Shown here: positions 44,000 to 60,212 of the stretch, piece by piece | Position numbering within the stretch: position 1 is the stretch's first letter | How the letters are laid out: each line of letters begins with the position of its first letter | Origin: a virus | Length of the DNA: 64,000 nucleotides | IMG/VR virus record: IMGVR_UViG_3300008259_003948 | Coordinates: 1-64,000 of that record | Reading direction: 5' to 3' (one strand) | The notes under the pieces: generated by a model | Told to the model about the DNA's origin: nothing | Databases searched by the model: none | What the model saw: the letters and a program-made list of their open reading frames with translations, nothing else | Program-made: the position numbers and the translations under genes

Positions 44000-44805
44000 C
44001 AAACCATTTGTGGTTCGTATTTTATGGATCTATCGTCCTTATAATAATATTCTTTCTTCGCTGTTTGGATCCAAAATTTAACTTCATCTTCACTCATAAT
44101 AGGTGTTCCATTTTTGTAATTCCAAAAAATAGATCCTTCTCTAAGGTTAATGTGTTTATATCCAATTTTTGGAATTGTCATAATTCTAGCAGAATTAAAT
44201 GTAAATCTTAACAACAATTCATAAACAAAAGTAAGTTTCATAGTAGGTTTGAATCCTCCAAAATCCTCAATCAAAGATTTTTTAAAAACCATACCAGATG
44301 TTTGGAAATTTTGGTATTGATGTAAAGTGTCGTTTGTTAAATAACCAACTTCTTGTGAGAATGACATTGCAAAAGTTGCTTCGTTAGTAAATCCGGCAAA
44401 AACACCCTTATTATCCACATCAACAACGATTGGTAAAAATGCATCCACATCAGGAAAAAATTCAGAATACTTTTTTACATTTTTAAACCAAATGTTTGAA
44501 TACTCGTCATCAAATTCAAAAATGGATACCCACTCAGACTTTGATTTAGAAATACCATAATTAACTTGTTTTGCAAAGTTTGGTTCCTCTGCCCATTCGT
44601 ATTTAGATACGGTTAAATCGCCAAAATCATAAGATGATAGTTTTGTAACAAGTTGTTCTTCACTTGTGTGAACAATAATCAATTCATTAATATTTGTTTG
44701 TTGTTGTTTTAACGAAAGGATTGCCTTTTCAAAATAATCATCAAAGTCTCTAACAACAGCAGACCTGATAGGTAAAATTATAGATACATTAAAGTTATTT
44801 TCCAT
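43999..44805 (-). CDS. GT2-type glycosyltransferase
   Basis: 268 residues. NVSIILPIRSAVVRDFDDYF starts a GT-A fold, SEWVSIFEFDDEYS supplies the D-x-D-like metal site, and NFQTSGMVFKKSLIEDFGGF is the acceptor-side motif of GT2 enzymes. It should transfer a sugar from a nucleotide donor in the cytoplasm. It is joined to the next gene (GT-B-like) and to the sigma factor by 1-nt overlaps, away from the main glycan island. Target may be a virion protein made at the same time. Confidence 0.78.
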   Translation of the reverse strand: MENNFNVSIILPIRSAVVRDFDDYFEKAILSLKQQQTNINELIIVHTSEEQLVTKLSSYDFGDLTVSKYEWAEEPNFAKQVNYGISKSKSEWVSIFEFDDEYSNIWFKNVKKYSEFFPDVDAFLPIVVDVDNKGVFAGFTNEATFAMSFSQEVGYLTNDTLHQYQNFQTSGMVFKKSLIEDFGGFKPTMKLTFVYELLLRFTFNSARIMTIPKIGYKHINLREGSIFWNYKNGTPIMSEDEVKFWIQTAKKEYYYKDDRSIKYEPQMV

Positions 44806-45869
44806 TATTGTTCAATTGTTTCAAGTTTATTTAATTGTTGTTCAAAAGAATTCAATCTTTCCATCATATATCCTGAGAATAAGAATACCACATTAGATTC
44901 AAATCCCTCAAAGTCACTATACTTAGCGGCTGTCTCATACCCTGTTTCGTAAATCTTTGGGTGAACATTATCTTCTAACCAATTTTGTACAAAATCCGCA
45001 ATTACATCAACAAATGAGTTGTTATCTGTAATCCAAATACCATTATCTTGTGTTAACCATTCAGGAGAGAGATAAGGAGCTCTACCTATTACTGGTACGC
45101 CAACTTTCATAGATTCCAAAGGATATGTTCCAAATCCGCTTGTAGGATCAATCCAAACCGATAAGAATGCGTCTTTCAATGAGTTAGCAAAATCTCTTTC
45201 ACCTAAACCTCTCATATCTCTGAAGGTAATCCATCTGTATTGAGGATACTTTAGATAGAAAGTCTTGATTATATTCAAAGAATCTCTTTGGTCTCTTGAG
45301 TGAATACACACAATTGGTTTTGGAGGTAATTCTTGTTTTTCAAAAACATTTGATATTGTTGGAGTAATAATATCAAAGGATGTGTTTCTCATAATTTGAG
45401 AAATATAATTTTTCTGAGCTTCAGATGTTGTAATACATTTCAAAAATGAGTATTGAGACCAAGATTGTCCAGGTTGTAAGGTCTCTAACATATGATCATA
45501 TGCTTGACACAATACAATCTTACCACAAGGTAAATTTTTAACCTGATCCATAATGAATCCATAGATCTCAGGAATAACCAAAAGGTCTTCAGGTGATACA
45601 GGTAATTGTTGACCCTCAATTTTTGCGTGAGGTAATTTGGACATATAGTCTCCTTCGAGCCACGAATTAACAGGTGTATAGTCATCTTTTTCATGCAACA
45701 TAATTGCGTTATAACCAGCATTTTTAAGCGCCATCGCCATCTGATAAATTATTCTTATCGAAGCTTTGGCATTACCTTTTGTGTCTTGAACAAAAAAGTA
45801 AATTCTCGCAGTTTTATCCTTGAGATTTTTGATTGAAACTTCAAGTTTTTTGATGTTTTCTTGATCCAT
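44805..45869 (-). CDS. GT-B-type glycosyltransferase
   Basis: 354 residues. ARIYFFVQDTKGNAKASIRI with GYNAIML forms a GT-B N-terminal Rossmann start, and DAFLSVWIDPTSGFGTYPLE plus SMKVGVPVIGRA is the C-terminal donor-binding motif (E-x7-G-x-P). It pairs with the adjacent GT2 gene through a 1-nt overlap. Donor and acceptor are unknown. Placement next to the late sigma factor suggests late expression and possible virion glycosylation. Confidence 0.75.
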   Translation of the reverse strand: MDQENIKKLEVSIKNLKDKTARIYFFVQDTKGNAKASIRIIYQMAMALKNAGYNAIMLHEKDDYTPVNSWLEGDYMSKLPHAKIEGQQLPVSPEDLLVIPEIYGFIMDQVKNLPCGKIVLCQAYDHMLETLQPGQSWSQYSFLKCITTSEAQKNYISQIMRNTSFDIITPTISNVFEKQELPPKPIVCIHSRDQRDSLNIIKTFYLKYPQYRWITFRDMRGLGERDFANSLKDAFLSVWIDPTSGFGTYPLESMKVGVPVIGRAPYLSPEWLTQDNGIWITDNNSFVDVIADFVQNWLEDNVHPKIYETGYETAAKYSDFEGFESNVVFLFSGYMMERLNSFEQQLNKLETIEQ

Positions 45870-45872
45870 AGT

Positions 45873-46130
45873 TTAAAATTTATTTATTAAGTTTTTATGT
45901 AATAATGTGTTAAATGCTATTTTGAATGGTATTGAAACCTGAGCTTTACTACCCAATGTCTCATCAACTTCGTCTCTTTCTGTCAAAAGAATTTCCATTA
46001 ACATTTTTACCATTTCATACTTTGTTACGCTGATGGTATTCTCTTCCGCTCCTGAATACGAGATAACCTCAATGTATGCCTCTACTTGATCTAAATCTAA
46101 GTAATAATTTTCTCCTAATACTTTTATCAT
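45873..46130 (-). CDS. Small hypothetical protein (85 aa)
   Basis: 85 residues, acidic, with MIKVLGENYYLDLDQVEAY and a C-terminal helical part. Coupled to the HAD-like gene upstream by an ATGA overlap and 3 nt from the glycosyltransferase downstream. No family recognised; cotranscription is clear. Confidence 0.58.
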   Translation of the reverse strand: MIKVLGENYYLDLDQVEAYIEVISYSGAEENTISVTKYEMVKMLMEILLTERDEVDETLGSKAQVSIPFKIAFNTLLHKNLINKF

Positions 46131-46750
46131 TTTTTAATTTGTTTAAATATATCTGTTAATTCACTCAAAGATCTGATCGTATATTTCGAATCTGTTGTTT
46201 TATTATATTCAGTTTCGAATTTTATGACAATTTTTTCAGTCGGATAGTTTAATAATAATTCAGGATTTGATGTAAGTAAAATATCAATATCATCCCAAAT
46301 TGAGTCTTTTGTTGTTTTTGAGTAAAATCTGATCTTTTCAATAAGACATCCAAACTTAGACAAGAAAAATAAAGTTGCTGGTTTACCTTTACCAACCTCT
46401 TCAGAAATTATCATTATCTCATTCTCAACTCTTTGATCTAAATAAAAGTCATTTAACAAGTTAAATGTATTGTTTTCAGAAGATCCGGCATGTCCAAAAA
46501 TTTGCATTGGAAATTCCTCATACATAAATTTTAGATATTCCTCCTCATCCTTAAATTTAAAAAAATCTGTCAGAGTTAATGAAGTAATAGGTGTTGTCAT
46601 CTCATATACAAAGTCATCAGTTTCACCTGTGACTATCATATTATTCTCACCAATCTCTAAATTATTTTCTATTAGATAGGATTCATAAACTCTTGTGAAT
46701 TTACCAATAGTATCTCTTAGGACACCATTAACATCAATTGCAATTCTCAT
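46127..46750 (-). CDS. HAD-like phosphatase/nucleotidase family protein
   Basis: 207 residues from ATG 46750; the frame extends to 46789 but without a better start. RIAIDVNGVLRDT is a HAD motif I, in which the nucleophile Asp is kept and the second Asp (acid/base, position +2) is Asn. PATLFFLSKFGCLIEKIRFY is near motif II/III, and DSIWDDIDILLTSNPE is motif IV-like. Such phage proteins resemble 5'(3')-deoxyribonucleotidases and may act in nucleotide metabolism. The D-to-N change would reduce phosphatase activity. Confidence 0.65.
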   Translation of the reverse strand: MRIAIDVNGVLRDTIGKFTRVYESYLIENNLEIGENNMIVTGETDDFVYEMTTPITSLTLTDFFKFKDEEEYLKFMYEEFPMQIFGHAGSSENNTFNLLNDFYLDQRVENEIMIISEEVGKGKPATLFFLSKFGCLIEKIRFYSKTTKDSIWDDIDILLTSNPELLLNYPTEKIVIKFETEYNKTTDSKYTIRSLSELTDIFKQIKK

Positions 46751-46802
46751 AGTCAGATAATAATAAAAAAAATAAACTTGTAAACCCACATTATATGAGT
46801 GA

Positions 46803-46830
46803 TATTTATATATGTTAATAAACTATTTAT
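46803..46830 (+). promoter_or_regulatory. Two TATTTAT boxes before the endolysin
   Basis: TATTTAT at 46803-46809 and 46824-46830; the second is 11 nt before the ATG at 46842. Confidence 0.5.
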
Positions 46831-46841
46831 TTTAAAAAATT

Positions 46842-47312
46842 ATGTTACTTTCAGAAAATTTATCTTTAGCAGAGGTAGTTAAGTCAAATACAGCCAAAAG
46901 ACTTGGTATTAATAATAACCCAACACCCGAACATTTGGAAAATCTTAAATTGGTTGCAAAACACATATTCCAACCAATAAGAGAACACTTCAAAAAACCA
47001 ATCAATGTTTCTTCAGGTTATAGATCAAAAGCATTAAATGATGCAACACCAGGATCTTCTCCCACATCTCAACATTGTACGGGAGAAGCTTTGGATTTGG
47101 ATCAAGATGATATGAATACAGGAGTTACCAATAAAATGGTGTTTGAATTTATCAAGAACAATTTAAATTTTGATCAATTAATCTACGAATTTGGTAATGA
47201 TCAAAACCCTGATTGGGTGCATGTTTCGTATGAATCAACAGGAAGACAAAGAAAACAAATTTTAAGAGCGGTAAAAGTTAATGGTAAGACAACCTACAAA
47301 CCTTATGTTTAA
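46842..47312 (+). CDS. M15-type peptidoglycan peptidase (endolysin)
   Basis: 156 residues. NVSSGYRSKALND, SQHCTGEALDLDQDD and NPDWVHVSY carry the His, Asp and His zinc ligands of the M15 (VanY/peptidase A-like) family, which cleaves stem-peptide bonds in peptidoglycan. No signal peptide, so release at lysis would need a holin or other membrane damage; no holin was identified here. It is the only plus-strand gene in this region and its end overlaps PhoH (convergent) by 4 nt. Confidence 0.88.
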   Translation: MLLSENLSLAEVVKSNTAKRLGINNNPTPEHLENLKLVAKHIFQPIREHFKKPINVSSGYRSKALNDATPGSSPTSQHCTGEALDLDQDDMNTGVTNKMVFEFIKNNLNFDQLIYEFGNDQNPDWVHVSYESTGRQRKQILRAVKVNGKTTYKPYV

Positions 47313-48046
47313 TGGTTGTCTTCGTATCTTTTTAGTATCTTACTAATAAGAGGATTCCTCACAACATCTCCGTCTTTAAATTCGTGAACTCCGATATCAT
47401 CTAAGTTTTGAAACTTCTTGATAGCATCCCATAGACCTGTTTGTGTCTTGTCTTTGTGTCTGTCAAATTGTTCCAAATCACCAGAAATGAAGAACTTGGA
47501 ATTGAATCCAATTCTTGTTAATAAAAGTTTCATTTGGTTAGGAGTTGAGTTTTGAGCTTCTTCAAAAATCAATATGGAATTATCAATGTTCATTCCTCTC
47601 ATATATGCTAGTGCAAAAACTTCAATTATATCAGATTGGACTAATTTGTCTTTTGCCTCTTTTCCAATTATTTTGGTTAAAAGATAGTATGATGGAAAAA
47701 TATAAGGATCTAATTTTTCTTCTACATTACCAGGAAGAGAACCTAGTTTTTCTTCAGCTTCAACTGCGGGTCTTACAATGATGATCTTTTCATATGTGTT
47801 ATTAGTATCTGTTAATAAATCAACTGCCGCTTTCATTGCTATATAACTTTTACCAACCCCTGCAGGACCTGAACAAATTGTTATTTGATGGTTACATAAT
47901 TTTTCGTAGTATTCTTTTTGACTTTCAGTTAAAAACTTATTTCTTGTTTTTTTTTGAACAATATTGTTAATTAAGTCTTTTTTGGTAAAAGACCTTGGTT
48001 CTGATTCTTCATTTGTTTTACGAGGTTTTGTGTTTCTTCTTGTCAT
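47309..48046 (-). CDS. phoH: PhoH-like ATPase
   Basis: 245 residues; ATG 48046 is used since the longer start is TTG. Walker A SGPAGVGKSYIA (about 59-70), VRPAVEAEEKLGSLPGNVEE, Walker B ILIFEEAQN and SGDLEQFDRH are all family hallmarks. PhoH proteins are RNA-helicase-related ATPases common in phages, with a suspected role in RNA metabolism or phosphate stress. The ATG overlaps the Gmd stop by 1 nt. Confidence 0.92.
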   Translation of the reverse strand: MTRRNTKPRKTNEESEPRSFTKKDLINNIVQKKTRNKFLTESQKEYYEKLCNHQITICSGPAGVGKSYIAMKAAVDLLTDTNNTYEKIIIVRPAVEAEEKLGSLPGNVEEKLDPYIFPSYYLLTKIIGKEAKDKLVQSDIIEVFALAYMRGMNIDNSILIFEEAQNSTPNQMKLLLTRIGFNSKFFISGDLEQFDRHKDKTQTGLWDAIKKFQNLDDIGVHEFKDGDVVRNPLISKILKRYEDNH

Positions 48047-49026
48047 CAATTTTTAGTTTTGAAATGGTTTAACCAATATTCTATCATTTCATCTAACATA
48101 TCTTCGAAAGTGTATTTAGGTTTCCACCCCGTGAGAGTTCTTAGTTTAGATGAATCGCCTTTCAAATTATTTAATTCTTCCGGTCTGAGATATTTTTTAT
48201 CTTGTTTAACATATGTTTCCCAATCCAAAGATAGTCTACCAAAAACATATGTACATAAATCTTTTACTGATTTAGAAATGCCCGTGGAGCAAACAAAATC
48301 GTTCGGTTTTTCTTGTTGTAGAATTAACCACATTGCCTCAACATAATCTTTGGCGTGTCCCCAATCTCTGGTGGCGTCCAAATTACCTAATTTTAGTTCG
48401 TTAGATAATCCTAATTTTATTTTTACGGCTTCTTTCGCAACTTTATTTGTTACGAAGTTTGTACCTCTCCTTGGTGATTCGTGATTAAAAAGTATACCAT
48501 TTGATATAAACATACCATAAGAGTTTTTATAATTTCTAGATATGTTATAACTAAAAACTTTAGCGCATCCATAAGGAGATACTGGATTCATTGGAGTTGT
48601 TTCTCTTTGATATCCGTCATCGTCTATTGAATTTCCAAACATCTCGGAGGAAGAGGCTTGATATATTTTGATTTTTGTGTCATTTAACCTAACCGCTTCC
48701 AAAAGATTTAATGTGCCTAATCCTGTTACATTACAAGTGTATATAGGTTGATCAAAAGAAATTCTAACATGTGATTGCGCGGCTAAATTATAAATTTCAG
48801 AAGGTTTTACTTTTTGAATTACACCATATAATGAGGATAAATCTGTCATATCTGCATAATGAAGATTTATTTCATCATAAACATTATCTAATCTTGTTGT
48901 TTGATTTTCAGATATTGAATTTCTCTTTAAGGTTCCGTGAACTTCATATCCTTTATTCAATAAAAACTCTGTCAGGTAAGATCCATCTTGTCCGTTTATA
49001 CCTGTTATTAAAACTTTATTTTTCAT
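48046..49026 (-). CDS. gmd: GDP-mannose 4,6-dehydratase
   Basis: 326 residues from ATG 49026, giving a 4-nt ATGA overlap with the next gene; a longer frame starts at TTG. It converts GDP-mannose to GDP-4-keto-6-deoxymannose. Motifs: ITGINGQDGSYLTEFLLNKG (Rossmann NADP site), YNLAAQSHVRISFDQP, and YGCAKV with the S-x24-Y-x3-K catalytic set, plus ESPRRGTNFVTNK and LGNLDATRDWGHAKDYVEAM, nearly invariant in Gmd. It starts the GDP-fucose pathway and lies next to the GT11 fucosyltransferase. Confidence 0.95.
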   Translation of the reverse strand: MKNKVLITGINGQDGSYLTEFLLNKGYEVHGTLKRNSISENQTTRLDNVYDEINLHYADMTDLSSLYGVIQKVKPSEIYNLAAQSHVRISFDQPIYTCNVTGLGTLNLLEAVRLNDTKIKIYQASSSEMFGNSIDDDGYQRETTPMNPVSPYGCAKVFSYNISRNYKNSYGMFISNGILFNHESPRRGTNFVTNKVAKEAVKIKLGLSNELKLGNLDATRDWGHAKDYVEAMWLILQQEKPNDFVCSTGISKSVKDLCTYVFGRLSLDWETYVKQDKKYLRPEELNNLKGDSSKLRTLTGWKPKYTFEDMLDEMIEYWLNHFKTKN

Positions 49027-49805
49027 ATTAATATCCAATCATTTACGAATAAATCTTTTGTATTTAATTTTACTGATGACCCAAACCAATTTTTAGGGGC
49101 AACAACTTTTTTGTTTTTGTTTTGATTTAACCAAGCCCCCCACCATGAAAAAGAAGAATTTGCAATAATATTATTTTCACATTTCGACATAAGAATTAAT
49201 TCTATAACTTGATCATTATCATCAACAAAAAATGAATTTTTAATTTTTAAATTATTTTTACACCAATCAATGTCATCTGAAAATATCAAAAAATTTATAT
49301 TTTGTAAATCTCTTCCATAAATCTGATCAATTGCCGTTTCATAATAACTTATTTGCAATGTTGGGTGAATATTTTGTAAATTCAAATAGTCACCCCTTCT
49401 GATGTGTATAGAGCAAGAATTATTTAATAGATTATTATACTTTTGTTCTATTTGTTTCTGATAGGATAAATTTAATTCTAAATAATTTAATAAAATATCT
49501 CTAACTTCGATGAAGTACTTTTCACTTTGGAGGTAACCAAATAAATCAAAATTGTTATTTTTATTTTCAATTTTGATTTCAGAAAATGTAAAATCATTTT
49601 CATTTATACTAATACAATTATTCAAAACTTTATAAGGTAAAGAATTTTTAAAATATTTAGATATATCTTGATTCGTATAAAAACAAAACCAATGAGGAAA
49701 ACAAAAATCAATGTCATTTTTTATTGCAATTCCTATTGTTGATGAAATTTGGAATAGTTGGTTTCCCAATCTACCGTATCTACCTAGTTTAGAGAATGTT
49801 ATCAC
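49023..49805 (-). CDS. Alpha-1,2-fucosyltransferase (GT11)
   Basis: 260 residues with a GTG start at 49805 overlapping the previous stop by 1 nt. GT11 motifs are clear: GRLGNQLFQISS (motif IV region), CSIHIRRGDYLNL (H-x-R-R-x-D donor motif), and NSSFSWWGAWLNQ. It transfers fucose from GDP-fucose in alpha-1,2 linkage. There is no membrane anchor, so it acts in the cytoplasm. It is coupled with gmd, so donor synthesis and use are encoded together. Confidence 0.92.
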   Translation of the reverse strand: MITFSKLGRYGRLGNQLFQISSTIGIAIKNDIDFCFPHWFCFYTNQDISKYFKNSLPYKVLNNCISINENDFTFSEIKIENKNNNFDLFGYLQSEKYFIEVRDILLNYLELNLSYQKQIEQKYNNLLNNSCSIHIRRGDYLNLQNIHPTLQISYYETAIDQIYGRDLQNINFLIFSDDIDWCKNNLKIKNSFFVDDNDQVIELILMSKCENNIIANSSFSWWGAWLNQNKNKKVVAPKNWFGSSVKLNTKDLFVNDWILI

Positions 49806-50335
49806 TATTTAATTGATATAACATTTAGAGACATTAAATCACCATTAATTTTATCCATATGTGGAAGATAACATTGACTATAATCATCAATATATGAATG
49901 ATCAGTTGATCTCCAATCCCATAAATTAATATTTGTGAACCCAATTTCTTCTAAATCACTTTTTAATGTTTCAAAATCAAATCCAATGTAATGGTAATTG
50001 TTTTCATATGTTTGACCACCGTACAATAGTCCCCAAAGAGACTTCAATTTTGCACCTCTATTATACTGGTCAATTACCGCACCTATGTCAGGTACTGCCA
50101 ACTTCAAGGTCCCTCCTTTTTTTAATAACTCAAACCATCTTTTTAAAACTAACTTATATTCGTGTCTACCAAAATGTTCCAAAACATGCGAAGCGTAAAT
50201 CTCATCTATTGATCCATTCTTAAACTGCTCCAATTTTCTAACATCAGATATTAAATCGCATGATAAATTTTCTCTAACATCGATGTTTATGTATCCATTT
50301 ATTATTTTATTACCACAACCTAAATGTAATTTCAT
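49805..50335 (-). CDS. SAM-dependent methyltransferase
   Basis: 176 residues. KLHLGCGNKIINGYINIDV is the SAM-binding motif I; IDEIYASHVLEHF and LLKKGGTLKLAVPDIGAVI are the other class-I methyltransferase landmarks. This subtype is common in polysaccharide gene clusters. Substrate not known; methylation of a sugar in the same glycan is plausible given its operon. Confidence 0.78.
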   Translation of the reverse strand: MKLHLGCGNKIINGYINIDVRENLSCDLISDVRKLEQFKNGSIDEIYASHVLEHFGRHEYKLVLKRWFELLKKGGTLKLAVPDIGAVIDQYNRGAKLKSLWGLLYGGQTYENNYHYIGFDFETLKSDLEEIGFTNINLWDWRSTDHSYIDDYSQCYLPHMDKINGDLMSLNVISIK

Positions 50336-50346: not shown

Positions 50347-51252
50347 TTATTTTCTTGTTATTTCATAATTCGAGACAAACCAATTAATAGTTTCCTCAAG
50401 AGCTTCTCTTATTGGAGTAAATTTAAATTTTGTATTTAAGGACATCAACTTAGAATTATCGGTAGGTTTCCTGAACTGACCTTCGGGTTTTGTTGTATCA
50501 TACATAACATTACCTCTGAAGTCAAATATATCCACAATTATTTCGACAATATCTCTAATTGATATTTCTTCTGAATTCGAAAGTATTAAAGGTTCGATAT
50601 CGTCGTATTCCTCCAAAACCCAAGTCATTAATTTTGCAATATCTTTACTAAATATAAATTCTCGTAATGGTGATCCTGATCCCCATATGATAAAATCAGT
50701 TTTATTCTTTTTTGCCAAATAACATTTATGAATTAATGAAGGAATGACATGTCCATTTATTATATTGAAGTTATCAAAAGGACCAAATATATTTGTGGGT
50801 ATAACACACACATTATTACACCCATATTGTTGTTTATAAAGTCTACTTTGAACCTCGAGCATCCTTTTGGAATATGCATACCCCTCATTTGAAAAGTGAG
50901 GAGGTCCATTATGGATTTTTTTTTCAGTCAGTGGGTAATCTATATCATCAGGAAATATACAAGTAGATAATGTCGAAATTACTTTTTTTATTTTCATTAT
51001 TCTACATACTTCCAAAACATTTGAATTCATCATAATGTTCTGATAAAAAAAATCTCCATTATTTGTCATATTATAACCAACACCACCAACCATTGCCGCG
51101 GTGTGAATTACATAATCAGGATTATACTTTTCAAAAATTTTTTTAGTTTCGTCAAATGATATTAAATTAGCATCCTTAGAATTTATTTTGAAATCAGATT
51201 TTATCTGAGATCCAACCAACCCTGACCCACCAGTGACTAAAATTTTTTTCAT
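50347..51252 (-). CDS. fcl: GDP-L-fucose synthase
   Basis: 301 residues from ATG 51252; the frame extends further but overlaps the next gene. It epimerises and reduces GDP-4-keto-6-deoxymannose to GDP-L-fucose. Motifs: KKILVTGGSGLVGSQIKSD, HTAAMVGGVGYNMTN, LSTCIFPDDIDYPLTEKKI, then YAYSKRMLEVQSRLY (catalytic Tyr and Lys). These are diagnostic for the WcaG/Fcl subfamily. It directly follows the product of Gmd in the pathway. Confidence 0.93.
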   Translation of the reverse strand: MKKILVTGGSGLVGSQIKSDFKINSKDANLISFDETKKIFEKYNPDYVIHTAAMVGGVGYNMTNNGDFFYQNIMMNSNVLEVCRIMKIKKVISTLSTCIFPDDIDYPLTEKKIHNGPPHFSNEGYAYSKRMLEVQSRLYKQQYGCNNVCVIPTNIFGPFDNFNIINGHVIPSLIHKCYLAKKNKTDFIIWGSGSPLREFIFSKDIAKLMTWVLEEYDDIEPLILSNSEEISIRDIVEIIVDIFDFRGNVMYDTTKPEGQFRKPTDNSKLMSLNTKFKFTPIREALEETINWFVSNYEITRK

Positions 51253-51256
51253 AATT

Positions 51257-51928
51257 TTATGATAAGTGTCCTTTCCAAACAGAATAATTTGATAAATCTT
51301 TATACTTCCAAGATCCTCCAGTATCATCATTATGTTCAGGTAATTTGTCAAATATTTCAATACCTCTTGCCGCTTGTTCTGGTGGCATGTAAAAATTCCA
51401 ACCCAACACGGTTAAATCTGTTATTGTTTCGTGTGGTTCTCTATTATTTCTTCCTTCATATCTAGCTAACCTAAACCATTGATATGCATCATAATCATCG
51501 GTTAATATCATGCCACCTTTGGCTATTGGTAAAACTTTCCTTATGTGAAAAGATAAACAATGAAAAGTACCTTTGATATACATATCTTTTGTAAATCTAG
51601 TCGCCCCATCAATAACAGGATAAGGATTTAAAGGGTAAACACCACTCCACTCAATATCTTCAAATTTTATATTACATCCTGAATGAATTATTAAACCTGG
51701 TACTGATAGATAAGTCTTTTTGGGTATTGTAATTGTACCAGTCGCTTTCAAATATTTTAAACACATGAACATAGCGTTGGTACAATTATCACAAGATACC
51801 GCATATTTGCTACCGGCGTATTTGGCAACTTTATCCTCGAACGCATCAACAATGTCCCAAGGATCATCAATTTTGTATCCTTGACTAATTAATTTTTCTT
51901 TTGTTTTTGTTAAATCTGAAATAAACAT
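51257..51928 (-). CDS. Short DegT/DnrJ-type sugar aminotransferase
   Basis: 223 residues; typical DegT family members have 360-400. The N-terminal large domain is present: GSKYAVSCDNCTNAMFM, TYLSVPGLIIHSGC and the PLP-lysine motif SFHIRKVLPIAKGGMIL, with Lys in the expected place. The C-terminal small domain is missing. Next to gmd and fcl it could aminate GDP-4-keto-6-deoxymannose (perosamine route) or another keto sugar. It ends 4 nt before fcl. Short versions of this fold occur in other phages; activity is uncertain. Confidence 0.75.
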   Translation of the reverse strand: MFISDLTKTKEKLISQGYKIDDPWDIVDAFEDKVAKYAGSKYAVSCDNCTNAMFMCLKYLKATGTITIPKKTYLSVPGLIIHSGCNIKFEDIEWSGVYPLNPYPVIDGATRFTKDMYIKGTFHCLSFHIRKVLPIAKGGMILTDDYDAYQWFRLARYEGRNNREPHETITDLTVLGWNFYMPPEQAARGIEIFDKLPEHNDDTGGSWKYKDLSNYSVWKGHLS

Positions 51929-51932
51929 AATT

Positions 51933-52640: not shown

Positions 52641-52641
52641 A

Positions 52642-53292: not shown

Positions 53293-53295
53293 TTT

Positions 53296-53862
53296 TTATA
53301 GTTTTTTTGATATCATATAACCCTCAACTCTATCAATTGGTAAATTTTTGATAAAGTGTGGAGGTAAATCCGCAAATAATATGTTTTCGAAACCATTTTC
53401 TATCATAAGTTCCTCAAATTTAAATTTAGCTCTATTCAAATTATTATTACCCATCACATAACCACCAGGTATAATATTTTTAATTAACCATTTTTGTACT
53501 TTTATTTTTAATTCAGGGGTATGTGGCATGCTACCGATGTCGTTGTGAACAAATGCTATTGGGATATTATCTTCCTCAGACAATTCATTACAATCTTTTA
53601 TAATTACTTTTTCATGACTATTGGGGTTATATAAATCGAAACCGATACATCTATCATATCCGTACTTTTGACATAATAAATCGAATGATATTGATTTGGC
53701 CGTACCAAATACTACAATATAACCTTCTTTAGGTATATCTAAATTAAATGTTACATCTTTGTAGAAATTATTGACGTAATATTTTTCTCCAAATTGATCA
53801 TGTTCATCAAATTCGGGGTTATTGAACCAAAAGTCATAAGACTCACTTTTTTTATTTGACAT
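53296..53862 (-). CDS. Methyltransferase-fold protein
   Basis: 188 residues from ATG 53862; an upstream ATG at 53901 would overlap the GT10 gene more. GYIVVFGTAKSISFDLLCQK, RCIGFDLYNP and PIAFVHNDIG suggest a Rossmann-like SAM-binding order without a classical GxGxG. IKNIIPGGYVMGNNN occupies the usual post-motif position. Likely a divergent class-I methyltransferase acting on the same glycan. Assignment is by fold pattern and context only. Confidence 0.58.
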   Translation of the reverse strand: MSNKKSESYDFWFNNPEFDEHDQFGEKYYVNNFYKDVTFNLDIPKEGYIVVFGTAKSISFDLLCQKYGYDRCIGFDLYNPNSHEKVIIKDCNELSEEDNIPIAFVHNDIGSMPHTPELKIKVQKWLIKNIIPGGYVMGNNNLNRAKFKFEELMIENGFENILFADLPPHFIKNLPIDRVEGYMISKKL

Positions 53863-54775
53863 ATTTGAAGTATTCTTTTGTATTGTAATTTGGGTTTTCA
53901 AAACACATATTGATTAATGTTAATAAAGTATCATCAGGATTAATATATTTTTTGGAAATCTCGTGATTTATTTTTATATACGGTAACATCTCCATATATA
54001 ATTCAATACTAATATTATTAATAATATTGTCAACATTAGTGATATCATTAAATTCTATAATTCCCCGAGAATCAAAAAAATCACTTATATTGGGACATCC
54101 TCTATATATTGGTATATTACCGGTAATAAAACAATCTAGTATTTTTTCAGTATAATAATTTTCGGAAATAGAATTTTCAATCGATATCGAATACATATAC
54201 GGAACTAAAGAGTCTGATTTAGCATCTAGTTGTCCTTTTATTGTTCCCGAACCGAAGAGATCAATTTTATTATTCAGTCTGTTTGCAACTTCTTTTCTTA
54301 AATTACGATCTAATCCTCCTTTAGAAGAATATACCATCGAAACTAATTTGTTTTTCTCATTCAATCCATGCGATTCCTTTTCTATACACACCCAATCTGC
54401 TGGGAAATACTTGTATTTTTTAGGATTTTTTTTTAATAAGTTTTCATTAAATGTAAAAATTAAATCCAAACTATCCTCAACAGATAAAACATCATTATAT
54501 GGTTGGGGCGAATAATCAATAGGCTCGAAGATTAAACCGATTTTGAAGTCGGAGTAAATCGAATTAATTAAATTGTTAGTTAAAAAATTATCAGTGAAAA
54601 CCGTTATACCATTTTTTGTTGTATTTGTAAAATTTTTTTCTTTGTGAACCCATTTGACATTTTGTTCAAATTCAATTTTTTTTACATTGTTACGCACACC
54701 ACAACGTAAACCAGCTTCTTTTATATTTGAGCAATGGGATACATTACTATCCCAAATATTTATTATCATTTCCAT
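53852..54775 (-). CDS. Alpha-1,3-fucosyltransferase (GT10)
   Basis: 307 residues. The GT10 signature is YMYSISIENSISENYYTEKI followed by GNIPIYRGCPNISDFF, matching the alpha-1,3/4-fucosyltransferase core (FENS, then YVTEK, then PVYWG-like). The N-terminal half is divergent. Soluble, cytoplasmic. It is the second fucosyltransferase in the island, so at least two different fucose linkages may be made. A downstream in-frame ATG at 54769 would give a 4-nt overlap with the sulfotransferase. Confidence 0.85.
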   Translation of the reverse strand: MEMIINIWDSNVSHCSNIKEAGLRCGVRNNVKKIEFEQNVKWVHKEKNFTNTTKNGITVFTDNFLTNNLINSIYSDFKIGLIFEPIDYSPQPYNDVLSVEDSLDLIFTFNENLLKKNPKKYKYFPADWVCIEKESHGLNEKNKLVSMVYSSKGGLDRNLRKEVANRLNNKIDLFGSGTIKGQLDAKSDSLVPYMYSISIENSISENYYTEKILDCFITGNIPIYRGCPNISDFFDSRGIIEFNDITNVDNIINNISIELYMEMLPYIKINHEISKKYINPDDTLLTLINMCFENPNYNTKEYFKYVK

Positions 54776-55392
54776 ATATTCTCAAATTTCTTGTTTATTG
54801 TGTGATCGAATTTTTCATAGAATTCTTTTTTAATCTTTGAATAATTACCATCAAAATGTCCCTGATTAATTACTTTTGGGTCTAATATATGTTCTTTTGA
54901 TTTTTTAATTGAAAATTCCTTATATATTCTGTCTAACTTATGTATGTCGAATTCGAATCCCAAAAAAGAAATAATTTTTTCGAATTCTACTAAATGATTA
55001 TTCATTATGTCATCATATTTTATAAAAATAATTTTATGACAATCTTCATTATGATATAACCATCTATTCAAATGATTATAATATTCATTTGAAATTATTT
55101 CAATATTGTTTAAATTAAACGGATCAATATTTTCATACATCAATAATGAAAATATAGTATCAGTGGGTTTTCGATATAGATATACAACCTTGTCAAACCC
55201 CCCTGTTAATCCTTCATCCCCTTTACCAACAACTCTATCATGAAGATGATATCCCCAATAATCTTTTTTATTAAAAAAACTTGTAGGTAAACAATATTTA
55301 TCTAAATATTGTTCTAAAATTAGTCTAACCCAATGACTTCCGCACCTTGGGTATGACACCAATTGTGTAATTTTAGGGTCAAAATTTTTCAT
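54766..55392 (-). CDS. PAPS-dependent sulfotransferase
   Basis: 208 residues. LVSYPRCGSHWVRLIL is the PAPS 5'-phosphosulfate binding loop (S-Y-P-R-S/C-G-S-H/T-W), VVYLYRKPTDTIFSLLMY the 3'-phosphate motif, and CHKIIFIKYDDIM the following strand. Such enzymes sulfate sugar or protein hydroxyls. It overlaps GT10 by 10 nt (or 4 nt if GT10 uses ATG 54769), suggesting action on the same product. PAPS would have to come from the host; no PAPS synthetase is in this window. Confidence 0.88.
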   Translation of the reverse strand: MKNFDPKITQLVSYPRCGSHWVRLILEQYLDKYCLPTSFFNKKDYWGYHLHDRVVGKGDEGLTGGFDKVVYLYRKPTDTIFSLLMYENIDPFNLNNIEIISNEYYNHLNRWLYHNEDCHKIIFIKYDDIMNNHLVEFEKIISFLGFEFDIHKLDRIYKEFSIKKSKEHILDPKVINQGHFDGNYSKIKKEFYEKFDHTINKKFENIWK

Positions 55393-56009
55393 AATTTTTT
55401 AATTTTTGTATTATTATTTAGTTCTTGATTTGTAATACAACACCATCCTGTAAGCTTATGAAAATTGGATGTCTGATCGGTATAATTTGGTATGTAAATA
55501 ATGTCATTAGGATTCAATATTTTTTGAATGTCTGAAAGCTTATATCCATTATTTGTAAAAATTGGATTATTTATATCAATATCATCTGCAAAAATATAAT
55601 AATTTTTAAAATTTTTCACAATAAAATTAATTTCTTCAAAAATTATATTTTCCCCTCCATTGAAATGAGCGTCTAACCAAAAAAAACAAATATTATTTAG
55701 TAGTTCTGGTTTATTGGAAACCAAATCATAAATAAAATGAGGCGAACCAATATTTTTAAAATAAACATTTTTATAATCAAAAACAAAATTTGGTGTATTA
55801 CTATGTACTTCACAGGAATAACAATTTATGTCATAATTTCTTGAAACAAAAAATAAAGTATTTCCCATATTTGTTCCAGTTTCGATGAAACTATCACATT
55901 TTCCTAATATGGTATCTACAAAATTTATTAGATGAATGTCCCCGTGGAATCCAGGCCCATCTTCACTTGTTTTAAAATTTTTCAAAAGAGAGTCGTAACT
56001 TTCAATCAT
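55389..56009 (-). CDS. Methyltransferase-like protein in glycan island
   Basis: 206 residues. CDSFIETGTNMGNTLFFV is a SAM-binding G-x-x-x-G type loop, CYSCEVHS and NICFFWLDAHFNGGEN follow as in sugar O-methyltransferases (macrocin/CmcI-like). An ATGA overlap links it to the sulfotransferase. Substrate unknown, presumably a sugar of the island's glycan. Confidence 0.65.
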   Translation of the reverse strand: MIESYDSLLKNFKTSEDGPGFHGDIHLINFVDTILGKCDSFIETGTNMGNTLFFVSRNYDINCYSCEVHSNTPNFVFDYKNVYFKNIGSPHFIYDLVSNKPELLNNICFFWLDAHFNGGENIIFEEINFIVKNFKNYYIFADDIDINNPIFTNNGYKLSDIQKILNPNDIIYIPNYTDQTSNFHKLTGWCCITNQELNNNTKIKKL

Positions 56010-56049
56010 GGCGTATAATAATTAAAAAAAATTGATTTATATATAATTT

Positions 56050-56202: not shown

Positions 56203-56209
56203 ATTAATC

Positions 56210-56842
56210 TTATTTTATTAACCAATTATAGTCTGTCTTTTTATTTTGTATATCTGAAAAATCAACTATTTGTTTGGCGATTGCTGGGTAAAAAGAATAG
56301 ACATTTCTATCTTTTTGTAATTTTACGTATGATAAATCAAGTGGTTCCGATAATAAATTTAATTTTTTAATAGTTTCATTGAAAATAGAATTTTTAATTC
56401 CAACTAAATGGGTTGAATAAGTTGTGTGTAGTTTACAAACTTTTTCATTAATTACTACGGGTGGCGTCACACCCATATGTGTATTATGATTACCTCCCAT
56501 ATATAACATATCCCAATCGTAAGGGAGTTCATTGAAATATGAGTCAATATTTTTTATTTCATCTGTAAAATAACAATCGTCTTCCAAAATCAATATTTGA
56601 TGATAAGAATTTTTTATAGATTCTGAAATAATGTTAATATTTGTAAGAACTAGTCCTAATTCTCCTGGTAACAATTTAGTTTTTATAGATTTGATATCTA
56701 AAGTTCTACCATCAACAGCACTTACTCTTTCGAATGAACCTAAATCGTATTTTTCAACCTGAGATTGGAAATTAATCATTCTATCTTTTCTTCGATCTAA
56801 ATTGATACAAAAAACTTTATCAAATCTATCAAAAAATTTCAT
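56210..56842 (-). CDS. GT25-type glycosyltransferase
   Basis: 210 residues. KVFCINLDRRKDRMINF, FERVSAVDGRTLD, LLPGELGLVLTNINII and ILILEDDCYFTDE are the four GT25 (LPS beta-galactosyltransferase) hallmarks, with EDD as the metal site. It transfers galactose or glucose onto LPS or glycoprotein glycans in bacteria. It ends 7 nt before the 50-aa gene. Confidence 0.85.
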   Translation of the reverse strand: MKFFDRFDKVFCINLDRRKDRMINFQSQVEKYDLGSFERVSAVDGRTLDIKSIKTKLLPGELGLVLTNINIISESIKNSYHQILILEDDCYFTDEIKNIDSYFNELPYDWDMLYMGGNHNTHMGVTPPVVINEKVCKLHTTYSTHLVGIKNSIFNETIKKLNLLSEPLDLSYVKLQKDRNVYSFYPAIAKQIVDFSDIQNKKTDYNWLIK

Positions 56843-56846
56843 AATA

Positions 56847-57398
56847 CTAATGATTTATTTTATAATACACCTCTTTAGTTACTATATAATTATTTGTCCT
56901 TTCTAATATTAATTTTATAAAATCTAAGTCTTCCCCATCTCTATTTGTTAAAAATCTTAGATTTTCAAATTTATTCTTATAACAAAAAGATATCCCAACA
57001 TTCCCAAAAATTATTCTGTCATCGTATATTGGTGGTAGAATACGACCATTATGAAACTTCATTCTCCAAAGAACAAAATCAAAATTAGAATACTTTGTTA
57101 ACAGGGTTTCAACATAATTTTCATCTAAGGTATCATCATCATCAAGAAATCCGATCCATTCCGTGTCACATACATCAATACCAAAATTTCTAACCAATCC
57201 TGCCATACCATGAGCATTACTTCTACTTCCCGTTTTTTCAATAATTAAAGTTTTAATCCTTTCATCATTAAATTCTCTACCTTTAACACCATCATATACT
57301 ATTATACATTTCCAATTGTTATTAGTCTGTTTCAATAGTGAATCTATAGTTCTAATAATACTATCTCTATTGATGGAGGGAATAATAAATGTTATCAT
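56847..57398 (-). CDS. GT2-type glycosyltransferase (short)
   Basis: 183 residues. ITFIIPSINRDSIIRTIDSL starts the GT-A fold; WIGFLDDDDTLDENYVETL holds the D-x-D cluster. It is shorter than most GT2 proteins (220-300) and ends just after the nucleotide-binding half, so the acceptor part is minimal. Coupled by ATGA overlap to the large GT upstream. Confidence 0.75.
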   Translation of the reverse strand: MITFIIPSINRDSIIRTIDSLLKQTNNNWKCIIVYDGVKGREFNDERIKTLIIEKTGSRSNAHGMAGLVRNFGIDVCDTEWIGFLDDDDTLDENYVETLLTKYSNFDFVLWRMKFHNGRILPPIYDDRIIFGNVGISFCYKNKFENLRFLTNRDGEDLDFIKLILERTNNYIVTKEVYYKINH

Positions 57399-58909
57399 TG
57401 ATTTAAATTTATAATATATTTAGAAAATTTATTAATATTGTTGTGAATGAAGGGTATTAATAATTGATTCATATCCATCATTTCTTGATTTTGAACAGAT
57501 TCTGTTTTACCTCTAGTTTGACTTTCATAATGATAAGCAACTGATCGACCATCAAAATAATTTTCTAATCCCATAGAAATACATTTTAAATTTAATTCAA
57601 CATCCTCAAAACAGGTCGTGTAATTCTCATTAAACATTCCACATTTTATAAAAGTATTTCTTCTTATCATTAATAAAGCCCCTGTATTACCAATAACAGG
57701 TTTTACATAATTAGTATAGTTATAATAAGAGAATAATCCATGATGTGATACAAGTATTGAATTATTTTTTTTCATATGGGCAACAAATATTCCATCATGT
57801 TGAATAGTATTGTCACCAAAGTGTAATCTACATCCCACTGTACCGGTCAACGGTTTTTCCTTAAAAACATTCACCATATTACCAATGACATCATTTAATA
57901 ATTTTATATCATTATTACAGAAAAGTAAAAACTCGTATTCATTTCCTATATAATTTTTGACGACATCATTGTTTATTTTTGCAAAATTATAATAGTCATA
58001 ATTGACTAATGTAATATTTGATAATTGTGAAATTTTGTTTTTAATCTGTTCTAATTCGTGGTATGATGATCCTGTGTCCGCAATGAAAATATGAAATGTT
58101 AATGGATTTGAGTTTGCAAAAATTGAATCAATACAATTAAATAACAAGTCAAGTTTACTCTTAGTGGGAATTATTATTGCAACCTTATAGTTCTTTTTTA
58201 TTATTTTTTTATTTTCAGGTATTTGTATGAAATTAGGTTTAAGATCTAATGGTAAAACTTTTGAATATTTACTAACAAATTTGTCCTTACTTTCAAAAAA
58301 TTCTTGATTTGGTTTACCAACAGATCGATGTGTTATTTCAAACGAGGATGTAACACCAATTTTCACACCGTCCAAATAATTTGGAACACAAAACCCGTGA
58401 TCGTAGAAGTGGAATTTACCAATAGATTCGTCAAAACTATGTTTAATTTTTGTTTTATCAAAAGCCATAAATAACCCATCAATTGTTACCACAGGAATTA
58501 AAAAATCAAATTTTGGACAATATCTGTTAATCCATTTTTTTTGACCATCTGGATGGTGATATACCTGGCCAACCATAGTTTGATTCATTCTCTCCCAATA
58601 CACTCCAGACGTTGGGAAATAACAAGATCCTGCTTTTCCGATTATTGAGTATTCGGGATTTATTTGAAAATCGCGTAATAACTTTTTTCCCCAACCATTC
58701 TCTAAACTAATGTCATTATGAATACAGACAACAATATCATATTTAGACTTAGAAATACCTTTATTATAAATTTCTGCTAAAGAATATTCATTATTATTTT
58801 GGTATTCTAAAATTTCGTATTCTTTAAGGCCTACAGTTCTAATCAAATGATCTTTGAATAAACTATTGTATGTTTTATCCTTATGGGTTGAGTAGACTAT
58901 TGTTATCAT
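57395..58909 (-). CDS. Two-domain glycosyltransferase
   Basis: 504 residues with two GT-A modules. Residues 1-215: ITIVYSTHKDKTYNSLF, YDIVVCIHNDISLENGWG (D-x-D-like) and VVTIDGLFMAFDKTKI. Residues 240-504: YKVAIIIPTKSKLDLLF, FLLFCNNDIKLLNDVIGNM, VIGNTGALLMIRRNTF and FNENYTTCFEDVELNLK, a full GT2 core. Possibly adds two sugars in series. ATGA overlaps join it to the dUTPase gene and to the short GT2, so the island is one transcription unit. Confidence 0.82.
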   Translation of the reverse strand: MITIVYSTHKDKTYNSLFKDHLIRTVGLKEYEILEYQNNNEYSLAEIYNKGISKSKYDIVVCIHNDISLENGWGKKLLRDFQINPEYSIIGKAGSCYFPTSGVYWERMNQTMVGQVYHHPDGQKKWINRYCPKFDFLIPVVTIDGLFMAFDKTKIKHSFDESIGKFHFYDHGFCVPNYLDGVKIGVTSSFEITHRSVGKPNQEFFESKDKFVSKYSKVLPLDLKPNFIQIPENKKIIKKNYKVAIIIPTKSKLDLLFNCIDSIFANSNPLTFHIFIADTGSSYHELEQIKNKISQLSNITLVNYDYYNFAKINNDVVKNYIGNEYEFLLFCNNDIKLLNDVIGNMVNVFKEKPLTGTVGCRLHFGDNTIQHDGIFVAHMKKNNSILVSHHGLFSYYNYTNYVKPVIGNTGALLMIRRNTFIKCGMFNENYTTCFEDVELNLKCISMGLENYFDGRSVAYHYESQTRGKTESVQNQEMMDMNQLLIPFIHNNINKFSKYIINLNQ

Positions 58910-59514
58910 ATTCCTGTTGATCCAAAACCTTTATCTTGTCTTGGGCTATCACTAACATTTATTTTTTCGTTGATTAGATTCAACCATTTTCCTGCAACTA
59001 CAGGACACACTACTCCTTGAGCTACTTTCATTCCTTTTTTAACCACAAATTCGTGATTGTTAACATTGAACAAAATAACTTTTATTTCACCCAAATATCC
59101 CTTGTCCACGGTTCCTGGTGAATTCAAAACCATTAAACCTTGTTTGATTGCAAGTCCACTTTTACTCCTAACTTGCATTTCGTGACCATCAGGTAAATCA
59201 AAAGACAGTCCTGTGGGAATCAAAGCTCTACCAAATGCAGGTATCGTAACTTCCTCAGTTGAATAAAAATCAAACCCTGAGTCCAATTCATAATTATATA
59301 CCGGATCCACGGCACTCTCATCCAACTTATGGTAAACCAATTTTAGTTTTGGTGTTGTGTTGATCATTTCTTGTTCTAACTTTTTAATGTCGAGTCCATA
59401 TTTTTCCAATATTTCATCATACATTTTTTCATCATTATCTGTGTCAAACATTTCCAAGATTTCATCTGGATTTGAATCCTCATATTCTTCAAAATCTTTA
59501 ATATCCATATTCAT
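58906..59514 (-). CDS. dut: dUTPase with acidic N-terminal extension
   Basis: 202 residues; trimeric dUTPases have about 150. The five motifs are present: SGFDFYS (1), RSKSGLA (2), GTVDKGYLGEIKV (3), a region around KGMKVAQGVV (4), and RQDKGFGSTG (5, at the C-terminus). It hydrolyses dUTP to dUMP and keeps uracil out of phage DNA. The extra N-terminal 50 residues are very acidic (FEEYEDSNPDEILEMFDTD). Overlaps the exonuclease stop by 4 nt. Confidence 0.92.
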   Translation of the reverse strand: MNMDIKDFEEYEDSNPDEILEMFDTDNDEKMYDEILEKYGLDIKKLEQEMINTTPKLKLVYHKLDESAVDPVYNYELDSGFDFYSTEEVTIPAFGRALIPTGLSFDLPDGHEMQVRSKSGLAIKQGLMVLNSPGTVDKGYLGEIKVILFNVNNHEFVVKKGMKVAQGVVCPVVAGKWLNLINEKINVSDSPRQDKGFGSTGI

Positions 59515-60212
59515 TTTAATTCTTTTAGTTTAGTTACAACATCAATTAATACATCAACATCTTGTTCACAATATTTTGTTATGGCCTCAAGCTGATCTTC
59601 TTCCCAATAAGCTTTATGAACTTTGTTTCCCGTTACTTCAGATGTTTTGGAAGAAGGGACACCCAAAGAAAGACACATAAGTTCCAAAGATCCAATGGAC
59701 CCAAATTGACCAAATTGCCAAATATCTTTGGTATCTAATGCTTTTATATCCCAAGGTTTGGTATCATAGGAAGGTAATATCTTTGGTGGTAATAATCCAT
59801 TAATAACCATTCTTTTGCTAACAACAGGAATATCAAAATTCTTAATATTATGACCACAAAGAACAAACCCTAATGGTTCAACCCTATTTAATAATGATTG
59901 AACACCCAATAATAATTCCTTTTCGTCTTTCGATGAAAATGATTGTTTTCTTTTTTTATTTTCGTGATCAATAAAAGAAAAACTGGCACAAACAATTTTT
60001 GAAAATTCTGTAACAAGTGCTGATTTTTGATAGAACATATCTTCTATCGATAAATGAGAGTCTTCATTAAATCTTTTTTTAAACCAATCGTAATATACTT
60101 CGAATAGGTATGCCAAATCAGGGTTCTGTTGTTGTAACTCTGAATAATTTGCGGCAATACCTACCGTTTCGATATCGAAGAATAATAGTTTGTTTAAAGG
60201 ATAGTTTATCAT
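59511..60212 (-). CDS. DEDD-type 3'-5' exonuclease
   Basis: 233 residues. KLLFFDIETVGI (motif I, D and E), FVLCGHNIKNFDIPVVSKRM (motif II, D) and AITKYCEQDVDVLIDVV (motif III with Y-x3-D) define the DEDDy class, as in PolB-type proofreading exonucleases. It is a stand-alone enzyme with no polymerase domain. It may act in repair or DNA degradation. ATGA overlaps link it to dut and to the GT upstream. Confidence 0.85.
   Translation of the reverse strand: MINYPLNKLLFFDIETVGIAANYSELQQQNPDLAYLFEVYYDWFKKRFNEDSHLSIEDMFYQKSALVTEFSKIVCASFSFIDHENKKRKQSFSSKDEKELLLGVQSLLNRVEPLGFVLCGHNIKNFDIPVVSKRMVINGLLPPKILPSYDTKPWDIKALDTKDIWQFGQFGSIGSLELMCLSLGVPSSKTSEVTGNKVHKAYWEEDQLEAITKYCEQDVDVLIDVVTKLKELK

What the first reader, a model, noticed from the sequence alone, without database searches (positions are those of the whole stretch)
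54766..55392. Sulfotransferase overlapping GT10: possible sulfated fucose glycan
A PAPS-binding SYPRCGSHWVR sulfotransferase is coupled to the alpha-1,3-fucosyltransferase. Together they could form a fucosylated, sulfated glycan, like the fucose-containing sulfated polysaccharides of marine algae that many flavobacteria meet. This would be an unusual surface for a phage. PAPS must be supplied by the host.
Basis: inference. Interest (0 to 1): 0.7.

Follow-up and report, generated by a model that had tools for sequence, protein, structure and literature searches.

The report
Phage sulfotransferase in fucose-glycan gene island
A large T4-like phage carries a sulfate-attaching enzyme gene inside an exchangeable block of sugar-building genes that also makes its own activated fucose, so it probably decorates a phage-made (most likely virion) glycan with sulfate; similar gene sets exist in cyanophages, but nobody has shown what they make.

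Summary
The gene is real. ORF 54766-55392 (-), 208 aa, is a PAPS-dependent-type sulfotransferase: Pfam Sulfotransfer_1 E=2.3e-13, fold match to SULT/Teg12/StaL, PAPS P-loop and R74/S82 present. The catalytic His is unresolved. It overlaps a GT10 fucosyltransferase in an operon that also encodes GDP-mannose dehydratase, GDP-L-fucose synthase and a GT11 fucosyltransferase, so the phage can make its own GDP-fucose. The operon has no transporter, polymerase or membrane protein, and overlaps are routine in it, so the overlap itself proves no coupling. The window is a fragment of a T4-like myovirus. The cassette lies in a hypervariable island between dUTPase and PhoH. This sulfotransferase was found in no related record searched. 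A sister phage (capsid protein 81% identical) carries, in the same island, a carbohydrate-type sulfotransferase beside a full APS kinase, the enzyme that makes PAPS. Fucose cassette plus sulfotransferase also occur in cyanophage S-SRM01. Best reading: a tailoring enzyme that sulfates a phage-made fucosylated glycan, probably on the virion, perhaps on its Ser-rich collagen-like fibres. Sulfate on fucose, the algal-fucoidan parallel and a flavobacterial host are not supported. New variant of a known kind; interest 0.5.

The parts
54766..55392 (-). Sulfotransferase (Sulfotransfer_1, 208 aa, shortened)
   Evidence: Pfam E=2.3e-13; PDB phmmer; AF2 model and Foldseek; P-loop residues 13-21, R74, S82
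53852..54775 (-). GT10 (alpha-1,3-fucosyltransferase family) protein
   Evidence: Pfam 36.4 bits; 2nzw E=1.8e-9; ENS..YYTEKI motif
49023..49805 (-). GT11 (alpha-1,2-fucosyltransferase family) protein
   Evidence: Pfam E=6.9e-31
48046..49038 (-). GDP-mannose 4,6-dehydratase
   Evidence: Pfam E=8e-119; TIGR01472 402 bits, just under cut-off 415; PDB 1n7g E=3e-102
50347..51252 (-). GDP-L-fucose synthase
   Evidence: GDP-L-fucose synthase 4e5y E=2.5e-102 over full length; S-x-C, Y-x3-K and GHV kept in the alignment
51257..51928 (-). DegT/DnrJ-family short sugar aminotransferase-like protein
   Evidence: Pfam E=1e-19; same short length in L231
51933..52673 (-). FkbM-family methyltransferase
   Evidence: Pfam E=9.7e-6; homologue in L231
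52642..53292 (-). 2OG-Fe(II) oxygenase-like protein
   Evidence: weak TIGR04324 match, 24.8 bits, below cut-off; homologue in L231
53296..53901 (-). Methyltransferase-like protein, conserved beside GT10
   Evidence: no Pfam hit; homologue in L231 at the same place; function read from sequence only
49805..50335 (-). SAM-dependent methyltransferase
   Evidence: Pfam Methyltransf_11 E=5e-6
55389..56009 (-). Methyltransferase-like protein, 4-nt overlap with the sulfotransferase
   Evidence: no significant Pfam hit; function read from sequence only
56210..56842 (-). GT25 glycosyltransferase
   Evidence: Pfam E=3.7e-7
56847..58909 (-). Two GT2 glycosyltransferases (56847-57398, 57395-58909)
   Evidence: Pfam
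58906..60212 (-). Fixed upstream flank of the island: dUTPase-like and exonuclease-like genes
   Evidence: kept in relatives; names from sequence reading, no family search run
43999..48049 (-). Fixed downstream flank: PhoH (47309-48049), h46127, GT1 (44805-45869), GT2 (43999-44805)
   Evidence: Pfam (the GT1 and GT2 matches are near but just below cut-off); PhoH+h46127+GT1+GT2 together in 88 of 88 related loci
242..4471 (+). Tail fibre with collagen-like G-X-Y repeats, candidate glycan acceptor
   Evidence: PHROGs; Pfam Collagen E=1.9e-25; Ser in most Y positions
7008..9140 (+). Second fibre-like protein with collagen-like repeats, candidate acceptor
   Evidence: PHROGs; repeats

Best explanation
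The gene encodes a soluble PAPS-dependent sulfotransferase that works as a tailoring enzyme in a phage-encoded glycan pathway. Shown by sequence: the phage encodes GMD and GDP-L-fucose synthase (GDP-mannose to GDP-fucose), GT10 and GT11 fucosyltransferases, further GT2/GT25 transferases and methyltransferases, with no membrane protein in the island; these genes sit in an exchangeable island flanked by fixed genes. Inferred: cytosolic transferases build a short fucosylated, partly methylated oligosaccharide on a phage protein, most likely a virion protein (the Ser-rich collagen-like fibres are the best candidates), and the sulfotransferase adds sulfate from PAPS supplied by the host or by genes outside this fragment. 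The island's turnover suggests that the outer glycan is changed repeatedly, for shielding or host adsorption. Step probabilities: active sulfotransferase 0.75; substrate is the cassette's glycan 0.6; glycan on virion 0.45; sulfate on the fucose itself 0.2.
For: Family and fold. Complete GDP-fucose pathway plus two FucT families in the same operon. No transmembrane segment in any island protein. Fixed flanks with variable contents; GMD+GFS in 24, GT10 in 24 and GT11 in 24 of 88 related loci. A sister phage of the same lineage (MCP 81%) has a Sulfotransfer_2 enzyme next to a full APS kinase inside the same island, so an unrelated sulfotransferase was acquired at that locus. Further sulfotransferase types occur elsewhere in sister genomes. 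Distantly similar cyanobacterial sulfotransferases, in three sampled loci, lie next to glycosyltransferases, epimerases or a polysaccharide-type ABC transporter. Fibres: 88 G-X-Y triplets, 66 with Ser/Thr at Y. Precedents: PBCV-1 encodes GMD+GMER and has fucose in its virion glycan (PMC4691112); mycobacteriophage capsid and tail-tube glycans (cited in PMC12619734).
Against: The sulfotransferase was not found in any related phage searched, so no conservation ties it to the GTs; L231 keeps much of the same gene order around GT10 without it. Nearest solved folds are cytosolic aryl/steroid and glycopeptide-antibiotic sulfotransferases, not Golgi carbohydrate ones. The K-T-H motif is aligned in only one of two alignments and residues 40-63 are modelled poorly. 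No PAPS gene in the fragment. No direct evidence that any virion of this lineage is glycosylated.
Confidence: 0.5

Rival explanations
1. Host-surface modification: the cassette products (fucose and sulfate) alter host lipopolysaccharide or exopolysaccharide during infection, for example to block superinfection or stop new virions sticking to debris.
For: Distantly similar cyanobacterial sulfotransferases lie in surface-polysaccharide clusters. Cytosolic GTs could extend host lipid-linked glycans (inference).
Against: No flippase, initiating transferase or polymerase in the island. Fixed core GTs travel with the phage in 88 of 88 loci, which fits a phage-borne acceptor better.
Confidence: 0.2
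2. The sulfotransferase acts on a protein (tyrosine of a virion or host protein) or on a small molecule, and its place in the glycan operon is incidental.
For: Best structural matches are SULT, Teg12 and StaL, whose acceptors are phenols, steroids and glycopeptide antibiotics; the gene was absent from all related islands searched.
Against: Sulfotransfer_1 also holds sulfotransferases next to GTs in polysaccharide clusters; a sister phage puts a Sulfotransfer_2 enzyme plus APS kinase in the same island.
Confidence: 0.15
3. DNA hypermodification: the glycosyltransferases decorate modified bases in phage DNA and the sulfotransferase modifies that glycan.
For: T4 glucosylates hydroxymethylcytosine, and virus-encoded GTs hypermodify DNA with diverse glycans (Pyle 2024, cited in PMC12619734).
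Against: No homologue of T4 gp42 (dCMP hydroxymethylase) or beta-glucosyltransferase in the window or in 203-kb sister G050; weak, because the same search missed gp43 and UvsX. GT10/GT11 and a GDP-fucose pathway are typical of protein or lipid glycans (family knowledge).
Confidence: 0.08
4. Degenerate gene: a shortened sulfotransferase that no longer acts, kept only briefly in a fast-turning island.
For: 208 aa against a 255-position profile with only the C-terminal part matched; K-T-H column replaced by G-K-G in one alignment; C-terminal motif changed.
Against: Open frame with P-loop, R74, S82 and the Y-D-D at 126-128 kept; H51 aligns with the catalytic His in the other alignment; confident fold outside residues 1-3 and 40-63.
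Confidence: 0.1

Closest known systems
Cyanophage S-SRM01 (Kyanoviridae) fucose cassette and sulfotransferase
   Same: T4-like cyanophage with GDP-L-fucose synthase, GT10-like transferase (tblastn), two alpha-1,2-FucTs, FkbM methyltransferase, GT25 and a sulfotransferase
   Different: Its sulfotransferase lies about 26 kb past that cassette, beside another glycosyltransferase and epimerase; it is Sulfotransfer_3-type per PMC10580990, and the window protein has no tblastn match there; no function known
Phage sulfotransferases (Sulfotransfer_3) of cyanophages S-SKS1 and S-SCSM1 and of OM43 phages
   Same: PAPS-sulfotransferase superfamily genes in phages; PMC10580990 states that their function in phage genomes remains unclear
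   Different: Other subfamily; the S-SCSM1 one lies among replication genes, not in a fucose operon
Chlorovirus PBCV-1 autonomous glycosylation
   Same: Virus-encoded GMD and GDP-fucose synthase feeding a fucose-containing virion glycan (PMC4691112)
   Different: Eukaryotic algal virus; N-linked glycan; that review does not mention sulfotransferases
Mycobacteriophage virion glycosylation (Freeman 2023, cited in PMC12619734)
   Same: Glycans on capsid and tail-tube subunits, acting as a shield
   Different: Own knowledge: different GTs, no known fucose pathway or sulfation
Mimivirus L230 and collagen-like proteins
   Same: A viral enzyme hydroxylates and glucosylates collagen-like virus proteins (PMC4691112)
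   Different: Hydroxylysine glucosylation; here the candidate sites are Ser at the Y position and nothing has been measured

Membership tests
PAPS-dependent sulfotransferase superfamily (Sulfotransfer_1) | Profile match above curated cut-off | tested here: met
   50.6 bits vs 22, E=2.3e-13
PAPS-dependent sulfotransferase superfamily (Sulfotransfer_1) | 5'-phosphosulfate loop (YPKSGTTW-type) | tested here: met
   SYPRCGSHW at residues 13-21; S13, P15, G18 invariant in 44 sequences; C17 and H20 deviate
PAPS-dependent sulfotransferase superfamily (Sulfotransfer_1) | 3'-phosphate binding Arg and Ser 8 residues apart | tested here: met
   R74 invariant, S82 in 42 of 43 relatives
PAPS-dependent sulfotransferase superfamily (Sulfotransfer_1) | Catalytic His of the K-T/S-H motif | tested here: inconclusive
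   H51 aligns with it, not in A3; region has pLDDT below 50
PAPS-dependent sulfotransferase superfamily (Sulfotransfer_1) | C-terminal RKG...W 3'-phosphate motif (secondary; varies among bacterial members) | tested here: inconclusive
   HFDGNY: F180 and G182 kept, but no Arg-Lys, and the column that is W in 37 of 43 relatives is I187
PAPS-dependent sulfotransferase superfamily (Sulfotransfer_1) | Sulfotransferase fold | tested here: met
   Foldseek probability 1.00 to many PAP(S)-bound structures, query TM up to 0.62
Carbohydrate sulfotransferase (as opposed to aryl, protein or small molecule) | Sugar acceptor | not testable with these tools
   Nearest solved folds are not carbohydrate enzymes; genomic context points to glycans
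GT10 alpha-1,3/4-fucosyltransferase | Profile match and conserved ENS...YxTEK motif | tested here: met
   36.4 bits vs 23.9; 2nzw alignment over the motif
GT10 alpha-1,3/4-fucosyltransferase | Linkage and acceptor | not testable with these tools
   needs assay
De novo GDP-L-fucose pathway | GMD and GDP-L-fucose synthase | tested here: met
   PDB E=3e-102 and 2.5e-102; both score below NCBIfam equivalog cut-offs (402 vs 415; 214 vs 500)
Sulfated fucan (fucoidan-like) biosynthesis | Polymerase or export machinery for a fucan chain | tested here: not met
   No membrane protein, polymerase or transporter in the island; the record is a fragment

The most novel reading that the evidence does not exclude
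T4-like phages of this lineage carry an exchangeable glycan island that builds fucosylated and, in some members, sulfated virion glycans, with certain members making their own PAPS through a phage APS kinase. This would be the first sulfated glycan on a phage particle that I know of, and a role for orphan phage sulfotransferases.
Probability: 0.35. Interest if true: 0.75.

Novelty: new variant of a known kind. Interest (0 to 1): 0.5.

Why it matters
Phage genomes carry sulfotransferases whose purpose is unknown (PMC10580990). Here one lies inside an operon that makes GDP-fucose and fucosyltransferases, and a sister phage has sulfotransferase plus APS kinase at the same exchangeable locus. That turns a vague 'auxiliary metabolic gene' label into a testable proposal: sulfation of phage-made glycans, perhaps on collagen-like tail fibres, with consequences for adsorption and shielding. 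It also warns against reading phage sulfotransferases as sulfur-cycle genes.

Tried and rejected
Single-protein scans for close relatives of the sulfotransferase in viral contigs, genome contigs and phage records found none. The exact YPRCG[ST]HW pattern gave only chance hits in genomes and in viral contigs. The first structure prediction, without an alignment, was useless (pLDDT 32). Considered and rejected: fucoidan-like polymer (no polymerase or export), specific coupling from the overlap (overlaps are generic), APS kinase in the window (absent). The APS-kinase-like genes in G084 and G047 match only profile positions 4-110 and 2-110 of 152, so they were not counted as PAPS makers; only G050's is full-length. 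The search for T4 DNA-modification genes in G050 was uninformative because it also missed gp43 and UvsX. A sample of 395 Bacteroidota genomes gave three weak matches, of which the best two look like an unrelated FAD-linked oxidase. Papers on sulfated phage virion glycans: none found.

Full report
Observation. The ORF at 54766-55392 (-) is as described. It is a sulfotransferase beyond chance: Pfam Sulfotransfer_1 E=2.3e-13, only sulfotransferases among PDB sequence matches, and, once 43 viral homologues were aligned, a model (pLDDT 77.9, pTM 0.76) whose PDB matches are PAPS enzymes (Teg12, SULT1C3, StaL, SULT7A1). The PAPS loop (residues 13-21), R74 and S82 are kept. The protein is about 50-80 residues shorter than most relatives, mainly between the P-loop and the 3'-phosphate strand. 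The catalytic His is not settled: H51 in 'HLHD' aligns with the K-S-H of cyanobacterial relatives in one alignment but not in the larger one, and residues 40-63 are poorly modelled.

Where it sits. The record is a 64,530-base virus contig with T4-like portal and major capsid genes; nearest named capsid proteins are those of Microcystis phage Mel-JY01 and Flavobacterium phage immuto at about 40%. Sister records with 79-81% identical capsid proteins reach 203-326 kb, so the window is a fragment and genes missing from it may be elsewhere. The host is unknown.

The operon. On the minus strand the island runs from the dUTPase-like gene to PhoH: GT2, GT2, GT25, a methyltransferase-like gene, the sulfotransferase, GT10, a methyltransferase-like gene, a 2OG-oxygenase-like gene, FkbM methyltransferase, a DegT aminotransferase-like gene, GDP-L-fucose synthase, methyltransferase, GT11 and GDP-mannose 4,6-dehydratase. 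GMD and GDP-L-fucose synthase match solved enzymes at E=3e-102 and 2.5e-102, the latter much closer to 4e5y and its group than to 1bws and 1gfs. The phage can therefore convert GDP-mannose to GDP-fucose and owns two fucosyltransferase families. No island protein has a predicted transmembrane stretch by hydropathy, so there is no exporter, flippase or polymerase.

Is the overlap meaningful? Of 21 junctions in and around the island, 8 overlap by exactly 4 nt and others by 1 to 50. The sulfotransferase stop overlaps the second GT10 ATG as ATGA. In L231, whose GT10 is 50% identical, GT10 overlaps by 4 nt a cytidylyltransferase-like gene. Overlap shows operon membership only.

An exchangeable island. 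With 80 PhoH relatives and 8 further loci from the GDP-fucose synthase search, the block PhoH-h46127-GT1-GT2 is kept in 88 of 88, and dUTPase-exonuclease flank the other side where visible, while the interior differs in length (2.8-9.6 kb where both flanks are seen; 10.9 kb in the window; the 10-kb flank limit biases this) and content. GMD plus GDP-L-fucose synthase occur in 24, GT10 in 24 and GT11 in 24 of the 88. L231 keeps the genes GT10, methyltransferase-like, FkbM, 2OG, DegT, epimerase, GT11, methyltransferase in nearly the same order but has no sulfotransferase. The window sulfotransferase was found in no related record searched.

Sulfation recurs. Sister phage G050 (IMGVR_UViG_3300031857_024884; MCP 81%) carries in the same island a Sulfotransfer_2 protein (56 bits over the whole profile), a full-length APS kinase (229 bits) and a DUF2061 protein. 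G026 and G084 carry Sulfotransfer_3/1-type enzymes after a GT9-like gene (my reading), outside the island, and G048, G036, G064 and G027 carry Sulfotransfer_2 genes elsewhere, beside 2OG-oxygenase-like genes where the neighbourhood was read. Unrelated sulfotransferases have thus entered this lineage several times. Cyanophages do likewise: S-SRM01 has a fucose cassette at 194-205 kb and a sulfotransferase at 231 kb. The function of phage sulfotransferases is stated to be unclear (PMC10580990).

What it most likely does. Shown: family, fold, operon, GDP-fucose pathway, absence of membrane proteins, island turnover. Inferred: cytosolic assembly of a fucosylated, methylated oligosaccharide on a phage protein, sulfated by this enzyme. 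Candidate acceptors are two fibre-like proteins (242-4471 and 7008-9140) with collagen-like repeats in which 66 of 88 Y positions are Ser or Thr; Ser/Thr-glycosylated bacterial collagen-like proteins such as BclA are known (own knowledge). This acceptor is a guess. Distantly similar cyanobacterial sulfotransferases (25-31% over part of the protein) lie beside GTs, an epimerase or a polysaccharide-type ABC transporter in three sampled loci, which favours sugar acceptors without proving it.

Fucoidan is a polymer of fucose; this cassette lacks a polymerase and has branch-type fucosyltransferases. No evidence points to a marine or flavobacterial host. PAPS need not always come from the host in this lineage. 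Sulfate on the fucose itself, rather than on another sugar, is undetermined.

Verdict. This is a new variant of a known kind: phage sulfotransferases and phage fucose cassettes are both on record, but a sulfotransferase embedded in a complete fucose operon, and a sister with sulfotransferase plus APS kinase in the same exchangeable island, give a concrete handle on what such genes do.

Noticed in passing
L085:6961-9344 (G050, IMGVR_UViG_3300031857_024884): Sister T4-like phage carries, in the same glycan island, a Sulfotransfer_2 gene, a full-length APS kinase and a DUF2061 gene, that is, a phage PAPS-making and sulfation module.
   Followed up: partly
L101:324-2936 (G084) and L105 (G047): GT9-like gene, Sulfotransfer_3 gene, short APS-kinase-like gene and cytidylyltransferase-like gene in a row in G084; the last two also occur together in G047. 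The short kinase lacks the C-terminal part of the APS kinase profile.
   Followed up: partly
L098, L099, L102 (G048, G036, G064): Sulfotransfer_2 genes, next to 2OG-oxygenase-like genes in L098 and L099, outside the dUTPase-PhoH island in related phages.
   Followed up: no
window 242-4471 and 7008-9140: Fibre proteins with collagen-like G-X-S repeats: 63 of 88 triplets have Ser in the Y position.
   Followed up: partly
window 43999-60212: Hypervariable glycan island bounded by fixed genes (exonuclease-dUTPase and PhoH-h46127-GT1-GT2) across the lineage; 88 of 88 related loci keep the PhoH side.
   Followed up: yes
window 50347-51252: GDP-L-fucose synthase is far closer to 4e5y and its group (E 2.5e-102) than to 1bws/1gfs (E about 1e-43).
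   Followed up: no
window 16668-18340: Two adjacent, overlapping ORFs together look like a ClpA/ClpB-type AAA chaperone (AAA_lid_9 and AAA_2 plus ClpB_D2-small), possibly one gene split by a frameshift.
   Followed up: no
L005:272-1641 (IMGVR_UViG_3300030616_000002): Two tandem sulfotransferase-like genes followed by methyltransferase and glycosyltransferase-like genes in an unrelated viral contig.
   Followed up: no
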